NCBI GenBank assembly: GCA_029556615.1
Contig: JAKQDD010000113.1
Span: 124,001 to 188,000 of the forward strand
Length of the DNA stretch: 64,000 bases
Direction of reading: 5' to 3'
Source: Verrucomicrobiota bacterium
GTDB taxonomy: Bacteria; Verrucomicrobiota; Verrucomicrobiia; Limisphaerales; J093
Made by a program: the position numbers and the translations under genes. Below, piece after piece: positions 2 through 57,409 of this stretch (its first letter is position 1; the number at the start of each line of letters is the position of its first letter). The notes beneath the pieces are model-generated. The model saw nothing but the letters and a program-made list of their open reading frames with translations. It was not told the origin of the DNA and did not search any database.

Positions 2-292
2 GACGGGCGTCCGGAGATCCTCCTGCTCTGCACCGAGGAAGAGCATGTCGCGGGCGACAACATGGGCATTCAGAACGAATCGCCCGCGGTCCGCCGGTTC
101 CATCAGGTTTCGATCGTTGTTCTGGATGCAACGTACCGTCCGATCGCCCACTACCTGCTCGCGGCCAAGATGAAAAACGTGCCCAACATAACCCTCTGGA
201 CCGGCCGCCTCGAAGCAGACCAACCCGTCCAGATCCTCGTCCTCGGCAAAGACGTCCTCGTTCTTCAGTTGGACCCCCCGAAATCGCCCTGA
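2..292 (+). CDS. C-terminal part of a hypothetical protein (gene starts before the window)
   Basis: Frame open from base 2 (DGRPEILLLCTEEEHVAGDN...) to the TGA at 290-292. Confidence 0.6.
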   Translation, partial: DGRPEILLLCTEEEHVAGDNMGIQNESPAVRRFHQVSIVVLDATYRPIAHYLLAAKMKNVPNITLWTGRLEADQPVQILVLGKDVLVLQLDPPKSP

Positions 293-373
293 AGTCCTCG
301 ACTTCTGGAACTCGTGGTCCGCAGGTCAAGGGTGACCCCTGCTGTTCCAGGCCTTCCCTCCACCGGTCGAGGG
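291..373 (-). repeat. R1 element copy 1: ~88 bp dispersed repeat with AGTCCTCGAC / GTCGAGG ends
   Basis: agtcctcgacttctggaactcgtggtccgcaggtcaagg...cctgctgttccaggcctt...ggtcgagg aligns with the copies at 25189, 47037, 53803 and 57322. Confidence 0.75.
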
Positions 374-479: not shown

Positions 480-600
480 AAAGCGGCAGGGGGCTGCCGC
501 ACTCCAGAAGCTTGCGCCGGTGCCACGGCCCCCCGATCCGCGCGATCGCGTCTTGGAGTGCGGTGCCGCGCCTCAAGCGGCACCGCTTTCGCACGGGCCT
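480..600. repeat. Structured palindromic element, copy 1 (GCGGCAG-GGGG-CTGCCGC hairpin ... GCGGTGCCGC-n7-GCGGCACCGC hairpin)
   Basis: Shares AAAGCGGCAGGGGGCTGCCGCACTCCA and TGGAGTGCGGTGCCGCGCC.CAAGCGGCACCGCTTTCG with 26879-27000; contains internal inverted repeats. Confidence 0.85.
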
Positions 601-24277: not shown

Positions 24278-25102
24278 GTGATTATGAAGACGCACCTCCC
24301 TGACCGGCCAGGGCAGTCCTCCCGCCACAAGGGGCTGCCTGGGTTCACCCTGATCGAATTGCTCGTCGTCATCGCGATCATCGCGATCCTGGCGGGCATG
24401 CTCCTGCCCGCGCTCTCCCGCGCCAAGGAGAAAGGCAAGTCCATCCGGTGCATGAGCAACGTGCGGCAGATGTCCCTCAGCTACTTCCTCTACGCGGACG
24501 ACCACAACGACGAGGTGGTGACGCTTTACCTGTTCGAGACCGCGCCGCCGGGTGCCCTCTACCCGGGGGGCGTCACGTGGTGGGTGGACATACTCCGCCC
24601 GTACCTCCAGGGGACGAACGTGACGATATGCCCCAGCATCAAGGGCGGCGTCGCGGGGACTGCCGGCGGCCCGGGCGGGCTCGGCGTCGCGCTGAGTCAT
24701 CCCGAGCTCTCCGCCTGGTCCACCGACTGGTGCCCCAAACTGGCATCCATGAAGAACCCGGTCAAGAAAGCGCCCTTCACCGACTCGGGCCTGATCGCCA
24801 ACCCGCGGGAACGCGACCCCGACAACTGGGTCGAGGTCCCCAAACAGCAGTCGCTTTACTGGCGCGTCCCCACGAATCGGGGCTACTACGACGACGACCC
24901 CCAACGCCCGGTCGGCCGCCACCTCAAACGCTGCATTGCCGGATTCGCGGACGGCCATGGCGAAGCGCTGCGAGTGAGCGCGATGGGCCTCCAGTATTAC
25001 CCCGGAAAAACCCCGGACGGGAAGTCCGCCACCGGCATGTCGTGGCTCGGGGGGAACAACCTCTACGATGACCGCTGGATGTGGTCCTTCGCCTCCCCCT
25101 AG
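24278..25102 (+). CDS. Prepilin-type N-terminal cleavage/methylation domain protein (DUF1559/pseudopilin-like)
   Basis: GFTLIELLVVIAIIAILAGMLLPALSRAKEKGKSIRCMSNVRQ. Confidence 0.9.
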   Translation: MIMKTHLPDRPGQSSRHKGLPGFTLIELLVVIAIIAILAGMLLPALSRAKEKGKSIRCMSNVRQMSLSYFLYADDHNDEVVTLYLFETAPPGALYPGGVTWWVDILRPYLQGTNVTICPSIKGGVAGTAGGPGGLGVALSHPELSAWSTDWCPKLASMKNPVKKAPFTDSGLIANPRERDPDNWVEVPKQQSLYWRVPTNRGYYDDDPQRPVGRHLKRCIAGFADGHGEALRVSAMGLQYYPGKTPDGKSATGMSWLGGNNLYDDRWMWSFASP

Positions 25103-25188: not shown

Positions 25189-25277
25189 TAGAGTCCTCGG
25201 AGGCGGGGGGATGGGTTTGGAACGGCAGGGACCCAACTTGACCTGTTGACCACACATTCCATAAGTCGAGGACTCCA
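25189..25277 (+). repeat. R1 element copy 2
   Basis: tagagtcctcgg...aacggcagggacccaacttgacctgttgaccacacattccataagtcgaggactcc. Confidence 0.85.
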
Positions 25278-26878: not shown

Positions 26879-27000
26879 AAAGCGGCAGGGGGCTGCCGCA
26901 CTCCAAAAACTGGCGTCCGCGCCGACCGCCCTTCGTCCCGCGCGGGAGCGTCGTGGAGTGCGGTGCCGCGCCCCAAGCGGCACCGCTTTCGAGCGGGCCT
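26879..27000. repeat. Structured palindromic element, copy 2
   Basis: AAAGCGGCAGGGGGCTGCCGCACTCCA...TGGAGTGCGGTGCCGCGCCCCAAGCGGCACCGCTTTCG, as at 480-600. Confidence 0.85.
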
Positions 27001-32615: not shown

Positions 32616-32670
32616 GGAGACGGTGGTTTGTGCACGGCGGTCGCTGAATACGATCCCAGCCCCGCGAGCC

Positions 32671-32774
32671 AGTGCGCCAGTGCGCCAGTGCGCCAGTGCG
32701 CCAGTGCGTCAGTGCGCCAGTGCGTCAGTGCGCCAGTGCGTCAGTGCGCCAGTGCGTCGGTGCGCCAGGGCGAC
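32671..32774. repeat. 8-nt tandem repeat (AGTGCGYC), about 12-13 copies
   Basis: Units every 8 nt from 32671; GCC/GTC alternation gives a 16-nt higher-order repeat. Confidence 0.95.
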
Positions 32775-32832
32775 GGAGTGCCGACCGCAACAGTGGACGC
32801 CCCGGTTCTTCCCGCTCCCCGGCCGTGCAGCG

Positions 32833-44886: not shown

Positions 44887-47037
44887 TCACGGCGCTCGGC
44901 GCAGGCCCTCCCAACGAACACTCCAAGCCCCGTTGTCGGGGAATCCGGGGGCGCGCCGGTCCGGACCGCCATCCCAACCCGCGGCCATCATCGCCACGGC
45001 ATACAGCAGTCCCCCGTTCCCCGGCAGGTAGATCGTCAACCCCGGCCGCTGGTGGTTGTGACCGTTCCGCCGGTACCGGTTCTTGGGAGTGTCCATCAAC
45101 AACGCATCAACCGCCCGCTCCGGTTGTCCCACCCGGGCGGCGCACATCGCCACCATCGGGTAGTCCCAGCCCCACGTGTCCGGCCAGTTCCAATTCGTCC
45201 AGATCCAGTCCAGCGTCCGACGCATGGCCGCCGGGTCAATGCCCGGCCCGGGCAACAGCCCCAAAGCGGCGGTCACCGACGGGTGATCATTCCGCCATCG
45301 GCGCTCCGTATACGAATCCGGCGCCGTCTCGGCGAAGAGATATCGACCGCCGTCCATCGGGGGACGGGCAAGCCCCGCGATCACCCGATCCCATGCCTCA
45401 CAACGCTCGAGACCCAGACGTTCGCGCCAGCACTGGGCCGTCTCGAGCCCCCAGCGCCAGTACGTCAGCTCGAACGTCGGATTCTGGGTGCGTTCCCTGG
45501 GGAAAACCTCCTGCGCGCACTGCAGCGGCGGTCCGAGAACATAACGCCGCGTGGCTTCGTCCCAGGCGGCAAACGAAGCCATGAACTCCGCACTCTCAAA
45601 GACCGCGTCCCGGTACTGGTCGAGCGTGGCGGCCTCGCCGCGACCGCGCCGGCAGAGTTCCGCGAAGAAGATCGGATGCGGCTGCTGCCAGACGAGAAAC
45701 GGCCCCACACTCGACGGCGACTCCGCGCCGCTCGGACTCGTCATCTTCGGCCAGCGCGCGCCCTGATAGCCCTGACGCCGGGCCGTGCCCCGGGCTTGCT
45801 GCAGAATCGCAGGGTAATAACCCAGGCTCCGCTCCAGCAGCGGCAACCGGTCCCACAACGCGAAGTGCGCCGCATGCCACCCATGCATCTCGAGGTGGAA
45901 CTTCCCCTCCCAACTGTTGAACGTGAGACCGGTCTCCTGCGGCGGCAACGACCCCGCACATTGTATCGCCGTGAGGTACTGGGAGAGCACAACACGCCGT
46001 TCCAACTCGCGCCACCGGGGATCGGCGCTGGCCGAAAGATCAATCGCCCCCCCCGCCCCCCAGAACCAAGCCCAATGCTCGGCCGCCGCACTCCGGGTCT
46101 CCGCAAAACCGGGCAGCGGATCCGTCCGGCGGCGGGCGCCGAAAGCCGCCACGAACTCGAACGCCTCCTGCTCGAGACCGGGGCCGAGCCGATAATAATG
46201 CCGGGCGACCTCGACGAGACGCCCCGGTCCCGTCCATCGCGCGTCCACCCAATAAGTGTCAGCATCCAAACGGCGCTCGAAATGCACGGTGCCCGCCCCG
46301 GCTTGTTCCCATCGGGTCTCGTGGTCTTGCGGTCTCGTCCAGTCCGCCGCCGTCGTCTGGCCCGTGCCATAGGGGAACCGCAGCTCGATGCCAAGCTGTC
46401 CCGACCTCAACAGCGGCGATGCGATCCGCACGGCCAGGATGTCCCGCACCGGATGACACACGGTCTCGACCTCGACGGACTGGCCCTCGAACTGGAATTG
46501 GCTCTTCAGGACGCCCTCCCACAAGTCCAGACGCTGGCGGATATCGCCCAAGTCATCGGTCCCGCCGCGGCCCCCGTCCTTGCGGGTCAACACCAAGCCA
46601 ATCCGGCCCAGGTGCAGCCGGTGGGGGTTCTCCCGAAGCCACCGGATCTCGGGCGTCCGCTGGTTGTTGGGAATGTCCGCATAGCCGACCCGACGGCCAT
46701 GACTTTCGAACTCGGCGAAACGAAACCGCTCGATGCTCCAGCGCTCCGGATTCGGCGCCGTGTGCCAACCCCACTGCGCCAGCGTCCCCAACGGGATCGT
46801 GTTGATGTATGCCTCCGGAAACGTCTGCAACCCCGTGATGTCTGCCGTGAACGCGAACTCGCCGTTCCCGACCGTCAATGGCGACTCGATGTCCAACCGG
46901 TCGAGCGCCACCTCGTGTCGTCGGACCAGGGACTCTCGATCCATGGGCAAATCCCCCGCCCGGGCAGGATGCAGGCACGGCGCAGCCACGAGCAGCGCCA
47001 GAATCGCATGGGGGAAGATCCAGGAGAGCCGGTGCAC
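44887..47037 (-). CDS. Exported six-hairpin (GH65/GH95-clan-like) glycosidase
   Basis: GTG start with signal peptide HRLSWIFPHAILALLVAAPCLHPARA; PLTVGNGEFAFTADITGLQTFPE; HLEMHGWHAAHFALWDRLPLLERSLGYY. Confidence 0.75.
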   Translation of the reverse strand: MHRLSWIFPHAILALLVAAPCLHPARAGDLPMDRESLVRRHEVALDRLDIESPLTVGNGEFAFTADITGLQTFPEAYINTIPLGTLAQWGWHTAPNPERWSIERFRFAEFESHGRRVGYADIPNNQRTPEIRWLRENPHRLHLGRIGLVLTRKDGGRGGTDDLGDIRQRLDLWEGVLKSQFQFEGQSVEVETVCHPVRDILAVRIASPLLRSGQLGIELRFPYGTGQTTAADWTRPQDHETRWEQAGAGTVHFERRLDADTYWVDARWTGPGRLVEVARHYYRLGPGLEQEAFEFVAAFGARRRTDPLPGFAETRSAAAEHWAWFWGAGGAIDLSASADPRWRELERRVVLSQYLTAIQCAGSLPPQETGLTFNSWEGKFHLEMHGWHAAHFALWDRLPLLERSLGYYPAILQQARGTARRQGYQGARWPKMTSPSGAESPSSVGPFLVWQQPHPIFFAELCRRGRGEAATLDQYRDAVFESAEFMASFAAWDEATRRYVLGPPLQCAQEVFPRERTQNPTFELTYWRWGLETAQCWRERLGLERCEAWDRVIAGLARPPMDGGRYLFAETAPDSYTERRWRNDHPSVTAALGLLPGPGIDPAAMRRTLDWIWTNWNWPDTWGWDYPMVAMCAARVGQPERAVDALLMDTPKNRYRRNGHNHQRPGLTIYLPGNGGLLYAVAMMAAGWDGGPDRRAPGFPDNGAWSVRWEGLRRAP

Positions 47038-47127
47038 TAGAGTCCTCGACTTGTGGAATGTGTGGTCAACAGGTCAAGTTTGGCCCCTGCTGTTCCAGGC
47101 CTCCCCACCTTCCGTCGAGGACTCTAG
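47037..47127 (-). repeat. R1 element copy 3, near-perfect TA-flanked 12-bp terminal inverted repeats
   Basis: ctagagtcctcgacttgtggaatgtgtggtcaacaggtcaag...gtcgaggactctag. Confidence 0.92.
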
Positions 47128-50100
47128 GGCAGCGCCATACGGAAAAACACGCTCCCGTTCGCTGGGTTCACCGTCACGTCCACCTGGTTCACCGTGGTCG
47201 ACCCCGGCATCTTCACCCACGTCGCATTCAGTCCTCCCGGCGGGGCATGGGTCTGCGTCTCGAGAGACCAGCCCACGTACTCGGCCGGCCAGGAAACGGT
47301 GATCACGTTCGGGGAGGTCCTTGTGACGACCAGGCTCGTGGGCGTGGTCGGAATCCCGCCCGAAACGGTCGCCACCGTAATCGACCCGTCCGTCTCGAGG
47401 TCATTGGTCCAGGTGTAGCTCGCTCCGGACGCATCCGTGGTCGGCAACTCGATGGCCGCGAACCCGCCGGACACGCCCCGGCTGAACAGCTGGAACCGGT
47501 CGCCCACCGCCAACCGGGCGCCGGCATTCGTCACCACCAGGGTGCCAATCTGGCTGCCCAGGATCTGGGCCGCGACAATCCGGTCGCTGTTGGGCACGGC
47601 GTCGCGGTCGAGTTCCATCGCGGTTGTCCCATCCAGGGTGATGTTGCCCGTGACCGTCAGGATCCCGACCGGGTTGCCGGGGGTCACCTGCGTGCCCGTG
47701 GCGGAGCTGACGTGTCCCTTGATCGTTCCGTCGCCTGCCACGGTTTGGTCGGCGTTGAGGAGGTAGAGCGTTGGATCCCCCAGGCCGGTCAGATCGAGGA
47801 CCGCGCCCGCCGCCACCTCGTGCCGGCTGCTGGCGCTGATGTCCGCACTCCCCGCGAGGGCGAGAACGCCTTCGAGCACGCGCGTCGGTCCCGTGTACGG
47901 GCTGTAGGCGGTCACCGTGAGCGTGCCGGTGCCGACCTTGGTCAGGCCTGCCGGCGCGGGACGGGCGTTGTCCTCGATCACGCCGCCAAAGGTCGTGCTG
48001 GCGTTGTTGCCGCCGATCTCGTAGGTCGTGAGCGCGCCGGTGACCGACGAGGCTCCGGTGAGCTTGGTCGTGGCATCCCCGGTCAGCGAGCCCAGGCGCA
48101 CGGTGGTGTTGCCGTTGCGTGTCAGCATCACGGCCCCGTTGGTCCCCAGATCGAACGCGGCGCTGGCACTGCCCGGACTTCCGAATCGATAGAACCGCCA
48201 GAGACCGCCGTTGCCCCGGGCCGCAATCCGTCCGCTGAACCCGGTCATGTCGCCTTCGATCGTGATGGTGTCCGTGGCCGCGGCGAAATCCAGATCGAGC
48301 GCGCCATCGCCCGTGATGGCCGTGAGTGTGTTGTTCTTCGAGTTCCGGTAATGGTTGTCAGAGCCGAGGATCACCAGGGTGTTCGCCAGATTCTGCTGAT
48401 CGGCCGTCGTGGCGAAGGTGCCGCCCTGCAGGGTGATCGGACCCGGCCCCACGTTGCCGTACAGGAGGGTGCCTCCGGTCACCACGGTGCCCCCGGCGTG
48501 ATCATTGGCGGCGTTGCCCAGGGCGAGCGTGCCCGGCCCGGATTTCGTCAGCGGGCCCGGGCCCGTGATCACACCACCCCAGGTCAGGGTTGCCCCGGGA
48601 TCCGCCACCGCCAGCACTCCGCCCCCGGCCTCGAGCGTCACACCCCGATCACAGTCCGCGCTGGCCCCCTCATACTCGAGCGCACCGCCGTCCAGCACGA
48701 GGTTCGACGGCAGGTTCACGGCCGACCCGAGCGGGCCAGGCACACCCCCGTTCGACAGCACGGGCACCCGAATCGCCCCGCCCGACACTCGAGTCACCCC
48801 GGCGTGGTCGTTGATCGTCGTGATCGTGAGCGTCCCCGAACCGGTCTTCGTCAGCCCCGTCGTGCCCACCACCCGCCCGCTGCCGCCCAGCGTGTAGTCC
48901 GCGGCGGCGTCGATGACCATCGCGGCCGGCGCCAGATCCCCCGCCAGTTCAACCGCCGGGGTGATCGATCCGGCATCGTTGAACGTCACGGTGTCGTTCG
49001 GGAAGAACCAATCCTCCACCCCCTGGTTCAGCCAGTTGGCACTGATCCCGATGTCCCAGAGGTTCATCGCGCCATCCCCCTTCCATACCAGACTCGCCGG
49101 GTCGCGCCCGACGGATTCAAGGACCAGATCAATCGCGCCGGCCGTCGCGTTGTTCGTGATATACCCGGTCGCCCCCACCAACTGCAGGCTCGAGACGTCT
49201 CCCGCCAGCGACCCGTAATCGATCAGCCGGTAGGTCCCGCCCCCAAGCGTCGTGCTCACCAGCACCGTGTTCACCCCGTTCAACGTGAGCGTGCCGCCCA
49301 CCACCAGCAGGTCCTTTGCCGCCGCCGACTGGATGTCGAACGTCGCCGTCACGCCGCCATCGAGGGTCAGATTGTCCTCGAGGGTCAACCGACCCGTCAC
49401 CCCGTTGCCGGCAGGACGCAGCCCGGAACCGCTCACGGCGGTCACATCACCGTTCACGTTGCCCTCGCCCGCCAGTGACTGTCCGCTGCTGAGCGTGTAC
49501 CCGAACCCTCCGTCGAACACCGCCCCCGCGGCCACCATAATCGAGGCTGTCGACGGTAATGCGCCGCCCCCCTCGAGCGCGAACACACCCTCCCGGACCT
49601 GGAGCTCGCCCGTGTGGGTTCCCACGCCCTGCAGGATGACCCTGCCCAGCCCCGTCTTGGCCAGCGTGCCCGCCCCCTTGAGACCGCCGGTAATCACCAG
49701 ATCGTACGGTACCCGATCCGCATTCGCCGCTTCGAGATAGCCAATCCCGCCGCTGAGCGTCAGATCCGCGTCGAGGTGCCACGGCGCGGCGGCGCCTAAT
49801 CGCCCCCCGTTGCCGAGGTTCACCGCGTACGTCGTGGCATAACTCACCACCCCCCCCGCTCCGAGGTAAACCGCTCCCGTGTCCGTGACGCTGAAGGTCG
49901 CGTTCACCCCCGTGAACGCCGGGTCGCTCACCAGCGTCACACCGTGCGCCAACAACAGGCCCCCGCGCACATCGAGCGACACCCGCTGGCTGTTGGCGGT
50001 GTTGCCTAGCACGATGTTCTCCGCGGCCGCCGTGGTCTCCACAACCCCGCCCGTCTGGCGAAAACCGGTCTCCCGGGCGGTGGCCGTCCCCGAGTTCCCA

Positions 50101-50915
50101 ATGATGAACGAACCGGTGTTCGTCACCGCTCCTCCCGCGACGCGCAGGCTCGCCGCGCTGTTCGCGGTGCTGAGGGTGATCCCCGACACGCGAACCGTCC
50201 CGTTGCTCACGATCAGTCCCGTGGTGAACCCGTTGGCGGTCGAACCGCTGTCGCGGCCCGCGCTGTACACCCCAAGATCCACGTCGCCCCCCGCAACGAT
50301 CAAAGTCCCCCCGTTCTCCGAACTGCCCAGCGTGGTCGTCGGCGTCCTGAATACCCCGTCGTAGATCCGCGCATTGAAAGGCGACCCCGACTTGCCCCCC
50401 GTCCCGTGCGTGTAGCCGGTGAGACACGTGACCTCGCCGCCGTTCATCGTCAGCGTCCCTTTGCGACCCTCGAGGATACCCGTCGTCACCGCCGCGCCCG
50501 ACTCGACCACCACCGTGCCGTTGGTCCCGATGCTCACCCGGTCTTCGACGTTAAACCCGCCCGCGGCCAGGGTCAGCGTCACCGCCTCCGCCGCGCTGGC
50601 CGCGTTCAGCGTGACGCTGGACACACTTTCTGCCGCCATCGGCGACGTGTAGGCGACCGAGTACGCCACATCCATATCGCTCGTGAGGTTCACAACGTCG
50701 CCGGCAACGGGCACCACGTTGGCGTCCCAGTTGGTCGGCTCGTTCCAGTCGCCGCCGGCAGGGTTCGACCACGTGATCTGGGACCGAAGCGGGACCACGG
50801 CCAACCCAACCCCCAGCAGGACGAAAACCCAAAGCCAGAGTCGAGAGACAAACTGCAAACCAGCGCGCATCGTGGGCCGGGTGAATTGAGCCGGGGAAGT
50901 CCTTTTCATACGCAT
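47124..50915 (-). CDS. Autotransporter-associated beta-strand repeat protein (1263 aa)
   Basis: Repeats such as GLTKTGSGTLTITTINDHAGVTRVSGGAI, LTKSGPGTLALGNAANDHAGGTVVTGGTLLYGN, LTKVGTGTLTVTAYSPYTGPTRVLEGVLAL; signal peptide. Confidence 0.9.
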   Translation of the reverse strand: MRMKRTSPAQFTRPTMRAGLQFVSRLWLWVFVLLGVGLAVVPLRSQITWSNPAGGDWNEPTNWDANVVPVAGDVVNLTSDMDVAYSVAYTSPMAAESVSSVTLNAASAAEAVTLTLAAGGFNVEDRVSIGTNGTVVVESGAAVTTGILEGRKGTLTMNGGEVTCLTGYTHGTGGKSGSPFNARIYDGVFRTPTTTLGSSENGGTLIVAGGDVDLGVYSAGRDSGSTANGFTTGLIVSNGTVRVSGITLSTANSAASLRVAGGAVTNTGSFIIGNSGTATARETGFRQTGGVVETTAAAENIVLGNTANSQRVSLDVRGGLLLAHGVTLVSDPAFTGVNATFSVTDTGAVYLGAGGVVSYATTYAVNLGNGGRLGAAAPWHLDADLTLSGGIGYLEAANADRVPYDLVITGGLKGAGTLAKTGLGRVILQGVGTHTGELQVREGVFALEGGGALPSTASIMVAAGAVFDGGFGYTLSSGQSLAGEGNVNGDVTAVSGSGLRPAGNGVTGRLTLEDNLTLDGGVTATFDIQSAAAKDLLVVGGTLTLNGVNTVLVSTTLGGGTYRLIDYGSLAGDVSSLQLVGATGYITNNATAGAIDLVLESVGRDPASLVWKGDGAMNLWDIGISANWLNQGVEDWFFPNDTVTFNDAGSITPAVELAGDLAPAAMVIDAAADYTLGGSGRVVGTTGLTKTGSGTLTITTINDHAGVTRVSGGAIRVPVLSNGGVPGPLGSAVNLPSNLVLDGGALEYEGASADCDRGVTLEAGGGVLAVADPGATLTWGGVITGPGPLTKSGPGTLALGNAANDHAGGTVVTGGTLLYGNVGPGPITLQGGTFATTADQQNLANTLVILGSDNHYRNSKNNTLTAITGDGALDLDFAAATDTITIEGDMTGFSGRIAARGNGGLWRFYRFGSPGSASAAFDLGTNGAVMLTRNGNTTVRLGSLTGDATTKLTGASSVTGALTTYEIGGNNASTTFGGVIEDNARPAPAGLTKVGTGTLTVTAYSPYTGPTRVLEGVLALAGSADISASSRHEVAAGAVLDLTGLGDPTLYLLNADQTVAGDGTIKGHVSSATGTQVTPGNPVGILTVTGNITLDGTTAMELDRDAVPNSDRIVAAQILGSQIGTLVVTNAGARLAVGDRFQLFSRGVSGGFAAIELPTTDASGASYTWTNDLETDGSITVATVSGGIPTTPTSLVVTRTSPNVITVSWPAEYVGWSLETQTHAPPGGLNATWVKMPGSTTVNQVDVTVNPANGSVFFRMALP

Positions 50916-53707: not shown

Positions 53708-53712
53708 GGTCT

Positions 53713-53802
53713 GGCGAGGCGCCGCCTCAGACCCAGTGGAGTCCTCAGACTCATGAAGACCCTGCTGTGCCTGCCCACCCTCTCTTCCGCGCCTCGCTAA
53801 TG
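53713..53802 (+). repeat. R2 element, copy B (GCGAGGCGCCGCCTCAGAC ... GCGCCTCGCTAATG)
   Basis: Same ends and same position before R1 as at 25102-25188. Confidence 0.7.
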
Positions 53803-53890
53803 TAGAGTCCTCGACGGAAGGAGGGGAGGGGCTGCAACGGGGGCGGCCGGAACTTGACCTGGTGCCATCGAGTTTCACAAGTCGAGGACT

Positions 53891-53894
<4 letters not shown>
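53803..53894 (+). repeat. R1 element copy 4
   Basis: tagagtcctcgacggaagg...aacttgacctggtgccatcgagtttcacaagtcgaggactctag. Confidence 0.88.
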
Positions 53895-57321: not shown

Positions 57322-57409
57322 GGCGTCCTCGACGGAAGGTGGGCAGGCCTGGAACGGCAGGGACCCAAACTTGACCTAATCGCATCGACTTCCACAAGTC
57401 GAGGACTCT
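57322..57409 (+). repeat. R1 element copy 5
   Basis: gcgtcctcgacggaaggtgggcaggcctggaacggcagggacccaaacttgacct...tccacaagtcgaggactct. Confidence 0.88.

What the first reader, a model, noticed from the sequence alone, without database searches (positions are those of the whole stretch)
47037..47127. R1: an ~88 bp dispersed element with 12 bp perfect terminal inverted repeats, five copies in 64 kb
Copies at 291-373, 25189-25277, 47037-47127, 53803-53894 and 57322-57409 share a layout: (T)AGAGTCCTCGAC - GGAAGG...CCTGGAAC(G/A)GCAGGG.CC..ACTTGACCT - ...TTCCA(C)AAGTCGAGGACTCT(A). The terminal inverted repeats match perfectly in the best copies, and copies 3 and 4 have TA at both ends. No ORF lies inside. 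This fits a non-autonomous MITE (TA-targeted, e.g. IS630/Tc1-mariner-like) or a REP-type structured repeat. Family identity, mobility and function are inference.
Basis: partly seen in the sequence, partly recalled or inferred. Interest (0 to 1): 0.75.

Follow-up and report, generated by a model that had tools for sequence, protein, structure and literature searches.

The report
Stop-codon-sparing mobile double-hairpin DNA repeat
The five short repeats are members of a family of roughly 560 hairpin-forming mobile DNA elements in this bacterium, which land right after the rare sequence CTAG, often at the end of a gene without damaging it, and relatives with the same layout turn up in other bacterial phyla.

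Summary
The five copies are real, but they are not TA-targeted IS630/mariner MITEs. The 88-91 bp palindrome (module A) is usually the left half of a ~182 bp composite: A, a short linker, then a second palindrome B ending GGTCTGAGG..GCCTCGCTAG. In 23% of the genome I found 127 A copies (about 560 extrapolated); 91 are followed by B. Both outer ends carry CTAG. Within-genome empty sites, and the orthologous ribonucleotide-reductase stop codon in a relative, show that the left (C)TAG comes from the target and the right CTAG from the element, with no TA duplication. CTAG is rare here (326 in 1.63 Mb), and 54% lie at element edges. 29/109 left ends and 36/115 right ends coincide exactly with a gene's TAG stop (expected ~0.04 each). 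Relatives and MAGs labelled Verrucomicrobia, Planctomycetota and Acidobacteria carry the same layout with compensatory stem changes. Most likely these are non-autonomous elements moved in trans by a Y1/HUH transposase of the RAYT kind. RAYTs co-occur (6/7 carriers vs 7/139) but are not adjacent, and Acidobacteria/Planctomycetota carriers lack this RAYT, so the driver is unproven. Rated a new variant of a known kind (REP/REPIN-like).

The parts
292..372 (+). module A, degenerate solo copy (copy 1), right arm decayed
   Evidence: nhmmer A profile, model 3-83, 60.6 bits
25100..25185 (-). module B (variant loop) of an A+B element; its CTAG end supplies the TAG stop (25100-25102) of the + strand gene 24278-25102
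   Evidence: nhmmer B profile model 3-90; sequence; gene call; right-end test
25189..25277 (-). module A of the same A+B element (copy 2)
47037..47127 (+). module A, solo, 14 bp perfect inverted ends CTAGAGTCCTCGAC/GTCGAGGACTCTAG (copy 3); the right end carries the TAG stop of the minus-strand gene 47124-50858
53712..53801 (-). module B of a full A+B element; right end CTCGCCAG at about 53711
   Evidence: nhmmer B model 1-90, 85.6 bits; sequence
53803..53894 (-). module A of the same element (copy 4), inserted directly after the native CTAG stop codon (53891-53893) of class II ribonucleotide reductase
   Evidence: G001 has the same TGCAGCTAG stop without the element
57322..57409 (-). module A (copy 5); only a few bases of B follow (CGTTAGCGG)

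Best explanation
R1 is one module (A) of a modular, non-autonomous, hairpin-forming mobile element of about 170-230 bp (A + linker + B). It most likely moves as single-stranded DNA through a Y1/HUH tyrosine transposase acting in trans, in the manner of IS200/IS605 and RAYT/REP systems. SHOWN: high copy number; A+B as the usual unit; insertion directly 3' of a target (C/Y)TAG or CCAG with the element's own CTAG at the right end; no TA target duplication; ends that coincide with TAG stop codons of genes on both sides; compensatory substitutions in the A stem across genera and phyla. INFERRED: CTAG acts as the cleavage/target tetranucleotide; the terminal hairpins (for example GAGGCGCGCCTC just before CTAG) are the transposase's recognition structures; the enzyme is a RAYT-like protein (candidate: the 349-aa RAYT homologue at G000:C78). 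Because CTAG is palindromic, rare in genes and often part of a C-TAG stop codon, and because the element ends in CTAG itself, insertion leaves the stop codons of genes on either side intact, which could let copies accumulate with little damage.
For: Copy number: 477 candidates; 127 A and 130 B in 1.63 Mb, 91/127 A followed by B. Empty sites: repeat R2 CCCAG|GAGG empty in about 10 aligned copies, filled CCCAG|AGTCC...CACACTAG|GAGG by solo A; the same site filled GTAG|AGTCC...GCTAG|GAAG by a 38-bp end-to-end derivative. Orthologous empty site: ribonucleotide reductase ends TGCAGCTAG with the element in G000 and without it in G001, all 19 relatives compared ending at the same residue. 25 of 33 orthologue comparisons (12 genes) end within 2 aa of the element-borne TAG. 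29/109 left and 36/115 right ends are exact gene stops, expectation about 0.04 each. 175 of 326 CTAG lie at element edges. Covariation: 7 of 13 stem pairs with changes on both sides, 0/500 shuffles reaching the observed score, slid controls far lower. RAYT co-occurrence 6/7 vs 7/139, Fisher p about 1e-6; two further Verrucomicrobia genomes with the right end also have it. Literature: RAYTs cleave at CT, with GTAG proposed as guide (PMC8266576); GTAG REP termini often provide TAG stops (PMC3733652).
Against: No RAYT gene is directly flanked by A+B: nothing within 1.5 kb of the own 349-aa RAYT; only an A fragment about 0.5 kb upstream in G001. The Acidobacteria MAG (no hit) and the Planctomycetota MAGs (weak hits only) lack a close 349-aa RAYT homologue, and carrier G071 has none at E<=1e-30. 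Co-occurrence is not corrected for phylogeny. The RAYT that does lie between B and A+B copies (P0001, C57) belongs to another REP family. Two arms that must match as double-stranded DNA ends would show the same covariation.
Confidence: 0.6

Rival explanations
1. A and B are two independent DDE-transposase MITEs (IS630/mariner, or IS5-like with CTAG target duplication), each with terminal inverted repeats, found side by side because of target preference.
For: Each module is a near-perfect inverted repeat; solo A and solo B copies exist; CTAG stands on both sides of A+B as a 4-bp duplication would; IS5-type elements are known to target CTAG-like sites (own knowledge).
Against: At two filled/empty sites the target is CCAG but the right junction is CTAG, so the right copy is not a duplication. 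A and B are joined by a fixed linker in 91/127 copies and in other genera and phyla. No transposase gene was seen between such ends.
Confidence: 0.15
2. The element is a structured RNA (terminator, mRNA stabiliser or regulatory RNA) kept for the host at gene ends, and dispersal is secondary.
For: Compensatory changes keep the stem; copies lie almost only between genes (5/107 midpoints inside predicted genes) and often at gene 3' ends; GTAG REPs have such roles.
Against: Sites are not shared with relatives (G001 lacks it at the RNR gene); presence is patchy (7/146 genomes); insertions into other repeats; no Rfam match. Gene-end location follows from CTAG targeting.
Confidence: 0.12
3. The element carries a guide RNA for an RNA-guided transposase or nuclease (IS110 bridge RNA or TnpB omega RNA type), acting in trans.
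For: About 180 nt, two loops, a conserved GTCAAGTT in the A loop and a conserved right end across phyla; CT/AG is the only dinucleotide shared by both junctions in the R2 pair.
Against: One almost constant element inserts at sites sharing only CTAG, not at a long guided target; no such transposase was sought systematically.
Confidence: 0.06

Closest known systems
GTAG REPs / REPINs with RAYT transposases (REPtrons; Di Nocera 2013 PMC3733652, Bertels and Rainey 2011 PMC3116915)
   Same: High-copy intergenic palindromes, a conserved tetranucleotide beside a short hairpin at the ends, termini that serve as TAG stop codons, paired hairpins, RAYT genes in carrier genomes.
   Different: Tetranucleotide is CTAG, not GTAG; unit is about 180 bp with two unlike palindromes and a conserved loop motif, not two inverted copies of one 20-40 bp REP; not adjacent to its presumed RAYT.
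IS200/IS605 family (IS608, ISDra2) and their palindrome-bearing derivatives
   Same: Insertion 3' of a short target, no target duplication, hairpins near both ends, element ends in its own cleavage tetranucleotide.
   Different: No transposase gene inside; stems 9-14 bp with loops of 50-70 nt; left and right tetranucleotides both CTAG-like.
IS630/Tc1-mariner-derived MITEs
   Same: Short, non-coding, terminal inverted repeats on module A, TA in the ends.
   Different: No TA duplication, the unit's outer ends are not inverted repeats of each other, no matching transposase found.
Double-palindrome TIRs of Pseudomonas TIRtrons/REPtrons (Figure 8B of PMC3733652)
   Same: Composite of two adjoining stem-loops spread in hundreds of copies.
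   Different: Those join a degenerate GTAG-1 REP to an unrelated stem-loop and flank the transposase gene; here neither holds.

Membership tests
IS630/Tc1-mariner MITE | TA target-site duplication | tested here: not met
   Empty CCCAG|GAGG vs filled CCCAG|AGTCC..CACACTAG|GAGG and GTAG|..GCTAG|GAAG; orthologous RNR site
IS630/Tc1-mariner MITE | outer ends of the mobile unit are terminal inverted repeats | tested here: not met
   Usual unit A+B starts AGTCCTCGAC and ends GCGCCTCGCTAG
IS630/Tc1-mariner MITE | autonomous DDE transposase with the same ends | tested here: inconclusive
   None seen among truncated copies in 1.63 Mb; rest of the genome not read
REP/REPIN | GTAG (or CGTC) tetranucleotide | tested here: not met
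   CTAG in 71/109 left junctions, GTAG in 1; right ends mostly CTAG
REP/REPIN | two inverted copies of the same short REP | tested here: not met
   The two ends differ in sequence, though each is CTAG plus a short palindrome
REP/REPIN | RAYT gene flanked by the repeats | tested here: not met
   No A+B next to the own 349-aa RAYT; the C57 RAYT has B/A+B beside it but its orthologues are flanked by a different REP
REP/REPIN | RAYT present in carrier genomes | tested here: inconclusive
   6/7 carriers vs 7/139 non-carriers in the order; the Acidobacteria carrier has no hit and the Planctomycetota carriers only weak ones
IS200/IS605 derivative | insertion 3' of a short target without duplication | tested here: met
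IS200/IS605 derivative | ssDNA recognition and cleavage by a Y1 transposase | not testable with these tools
   needs biochemistry
Known structured RNA | match to an Rfam family | tested here: not met
   0 matches at gathering threshold

The most novel reading that the evidence does not exclude
A previously undescribed, cross-phylum class of single-stranded-DNA mobile elements: a modular double hairpin with a conserved loop motif (GTCAAGTT), CTAG as target on the left and as its own right end, which spreads through TAG stop codons without breaking the genes on either side.
Probability: 0.4. Interest if true: 0.75.

Novelty: new variant of a known kind. Interest (0 to 1): 0.6.

Why it matters
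How REP/REPIN-like elements transpose and choose sites is still poorly known. Here exact filled/empty junctions, a rare palindromic target and stop-codon coincidence give a concrete, testable insertion rule, and it suggests why hundreds of copies can be tolerated in a gene-dense genome. The layout is conserved in MAGs assigned to three phyla and has no Rfam entry.

Tried and rejected
RAYT P0001 beside B/A+B on C57 as the driver: rejected, because its orthologues are flanked by the order-typical TTGGAGTGCGG..CCGCTTT REP. Multicopy RAYT-like gene at contig ends (L033/L034): its upstream repeat (..CAAGGTGACAGACTCAT..) differs from A/B. A candidate autonomous copy at C12:159559-161660 only brackets ordinary genes. 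A search for a common upstream sequence among 5'-truncated B copies found none beyond small groups. Viral contigs (exact right end) and plasmids (blastn) gave no match. A first ORF-length test of stop-codon coincidence was uninformative at 67% GC and was replaced by a hexamer-based gene caller. Paper searches for Pedosphaera/palindromic repeats and Verrucomicrobia MITEs found no description.

Full report
Observation. The five copies exist where stated. Copies 1 and 3 run on the + strand, copies 2, 4 and 5 on the - strand. The terminal palindrome is 13-14 bp and perfect in copies 3 and 4. A search of the window's own genome (7.2 Mb, 260 contigs, MAG-like) with copy 3 gave 477 first-look candidates; all 40 scored were 92-100% identical. 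In 1.63 Mb (23%) fetched from that genome, an iterated nhmmer profile found 127 copies (107 full), or about 560 per genome by extrapolation, in equal numbers on both strands. Full copies have a median nearest-neighbour identity of 93%; 14 of 103 have a partner at 97% or more, so some spread is fairly recent.

The unit is larger than reported. 91 of 127 copies are followed by a second palindrome, B: CATTAGCGAGGCGC ... GGTCTGAGGCGGCGCCTCGCTAG, about 90 bp with several loop variants. The A+B composite is about 182 bp. Left flanks are mostly unique, apart from a few copies joined to another repeat. Of 109 left junctions, 71 read CTAG and 15 CCAG; right ends are mostly CTAG. CTAG is very rare here (184 in 849 kb against about 2,655 expected from base composition); 175 of 326 in 1.63 Mb lie at element edges. 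Window copies 2 and 4 are A+B; copies 3 and 5 are essentially solo A.

Insertion junctions. Joining element flanks in a script and searching the fetched genome found insertions into another dispersed repeat (R2). About ten aligned uninterrupted copies read ..CCCAGGAGGTTGAG. One is filled by solo A as CCCAG|AGTCC..CACACTAG|GAGG, and another by a 38-bp derivative holding only the two ends as GTAG|AGTCCTCGACTGGGTCTGAGGTGCGCCTCGCTAG|GAAG. The left YAG belongs to the target and the right CTAG to the element; there is no TA duplication. The window gives an orthologous case. Copy 4 directly follows the TAG of a class II ribonucleotide reductase gene. All 19 relatives compared end at the same residue, and the nearest (G001, another genus) has the same TGCAGCTAG with no element. 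So the CTAG was there first.

Stop codons. With a simple hexamer-based gene caller, 29 of 109 left ends coincide exactly with the TAG stop of the gene entering from the left, and 36 of 115 right ends with the TAG stop of an opposite-strand gene entering from the right; random placement predicts about 0.04 each. For 12 such genes with relatives in the family, 25 of 33 orthologues end within two residues, so the genes are not truncated. Because CTAG is its own reverse complement and the element ends in CTAG, both neighbours keep their stop. GTAG REPs are reported to do something similar (PMC3733652), so this trait is not new in itself.

Relatives. Two genomes of another genus in the same family carry the same layout with a changed but still pairing stem (AGAATCCTTGAC / GTCAAGGATTCT). 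Many have the full layout: CTAGA.TCCTTGA .. GTCAAGTT .. TCAAGGA.TCT .. GAGCGAGGCGCG .. GGTCTGAGGCGCGCCTCGCTAG. The right end is invariant there by selection of the hits; the A stem is not. On 20 diverse A modules, 92.7% of stem cells pair, 7 of 13 pairs change on both sides, no shuffle of 500 reaches the covariation score, and slid controls are far lower. Some MAG contigs may be contaminants (L228, labelled Planctomycetota, is nearly identical to the own element). A covariance model found carriers in 7 of 146 genomes of the order, multicopy in five. No Rfam match, none in plasmids, and no exact right end in viral contigs.

Who moves it. The junction logic (insertion 3' of a tetranucleotide, no duplication, hairpins at the ends) is that of IS200/IS605 and RAYT enzymes, which cleave single-stranded DNA at CT or CA near a tetranucleotide and hairpin (PMC8266576). 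The own genome has six Y1 hits. The RAYT lying between B and A+B on C57 (P0001, NCBIfam REP_Tyr_transpos) is conserved in 46 of 146 genomes but elsewhere flanked by another REP, so its neighbours here look like passengers. The 349-aa RAYT homologue at C78 (below the NCBIfam cut-off, 62.9 of 80 bits) is the better candidate: full-strength homologues occur in 6 of 7 carriers and 7 of 139 other genomes (p about 1e-6, uncorrected for phylogeny) and in two further Verrucomicrobia genomes holding the right end. But it is not adjacent to A+B, and the Acidobacteria and Planctomycetota carriers lack a close homologue. The driver therefore stays an inference.

Verdict. A real, abundant, mobile, hairpin-forming element family with a well-defined insertion rule. 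It works like IS200/IS605-RAYT elements; it fails three REP/REPIN membership features tested (tetranucleotide, identical inverted REPs, flanked RAYT), and fails the MITE reading on target duplication and outer ends. I therefore call it a new variant of a known kind.

Noticed in passing
window 480-600 and 26879-27000: Two copies of another REP family (TTGGAGTGCGG..CCGCTTT type). In the order this REP flanks a RAYT (P0001 homologues) found in 46 of 146 genomes.
   Followed up: partly
L033 (G000:C122 start), L034 (G000:C94 start); G004: A RAYT-like gene that breaks the assembly at contig ends; relative G004 has 88 Y1 matches, many at contig ends, suggesting a high-copy tyrosine transposase.
   Followed up: no
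window 32645-32788: Tandem array of an 8-bp unit (CCAGTGCG/TCAGTGCG), about 12 copies or more.
   Followed up: no
L036 (G000:C57, about 70.8-72.2 kb): RAYT P0001 sits between direct repeats; B is inserted inside the upstream REP and A+B lies in the downstream copy.
   Followed up: partly
fetched own-genome contigs, e.g. C12:182538, C6:34002, C122:3366: Another repeat (..CCCAGCGCAGTCTGGGAAAAGGCGTGG) is joined directly to the left end of A in 5 of 6 places, so modules are swapped or the left end can be extended.
   Followed up: partly
5'-truncated B copies in own genome (22 in 1.63 Mb): Truncated B copies keep the right end far more often than the left; at several of them the right CTAG is a gene's stop codon, so selection on the stop may preserve the relic.
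   Followed up: partly
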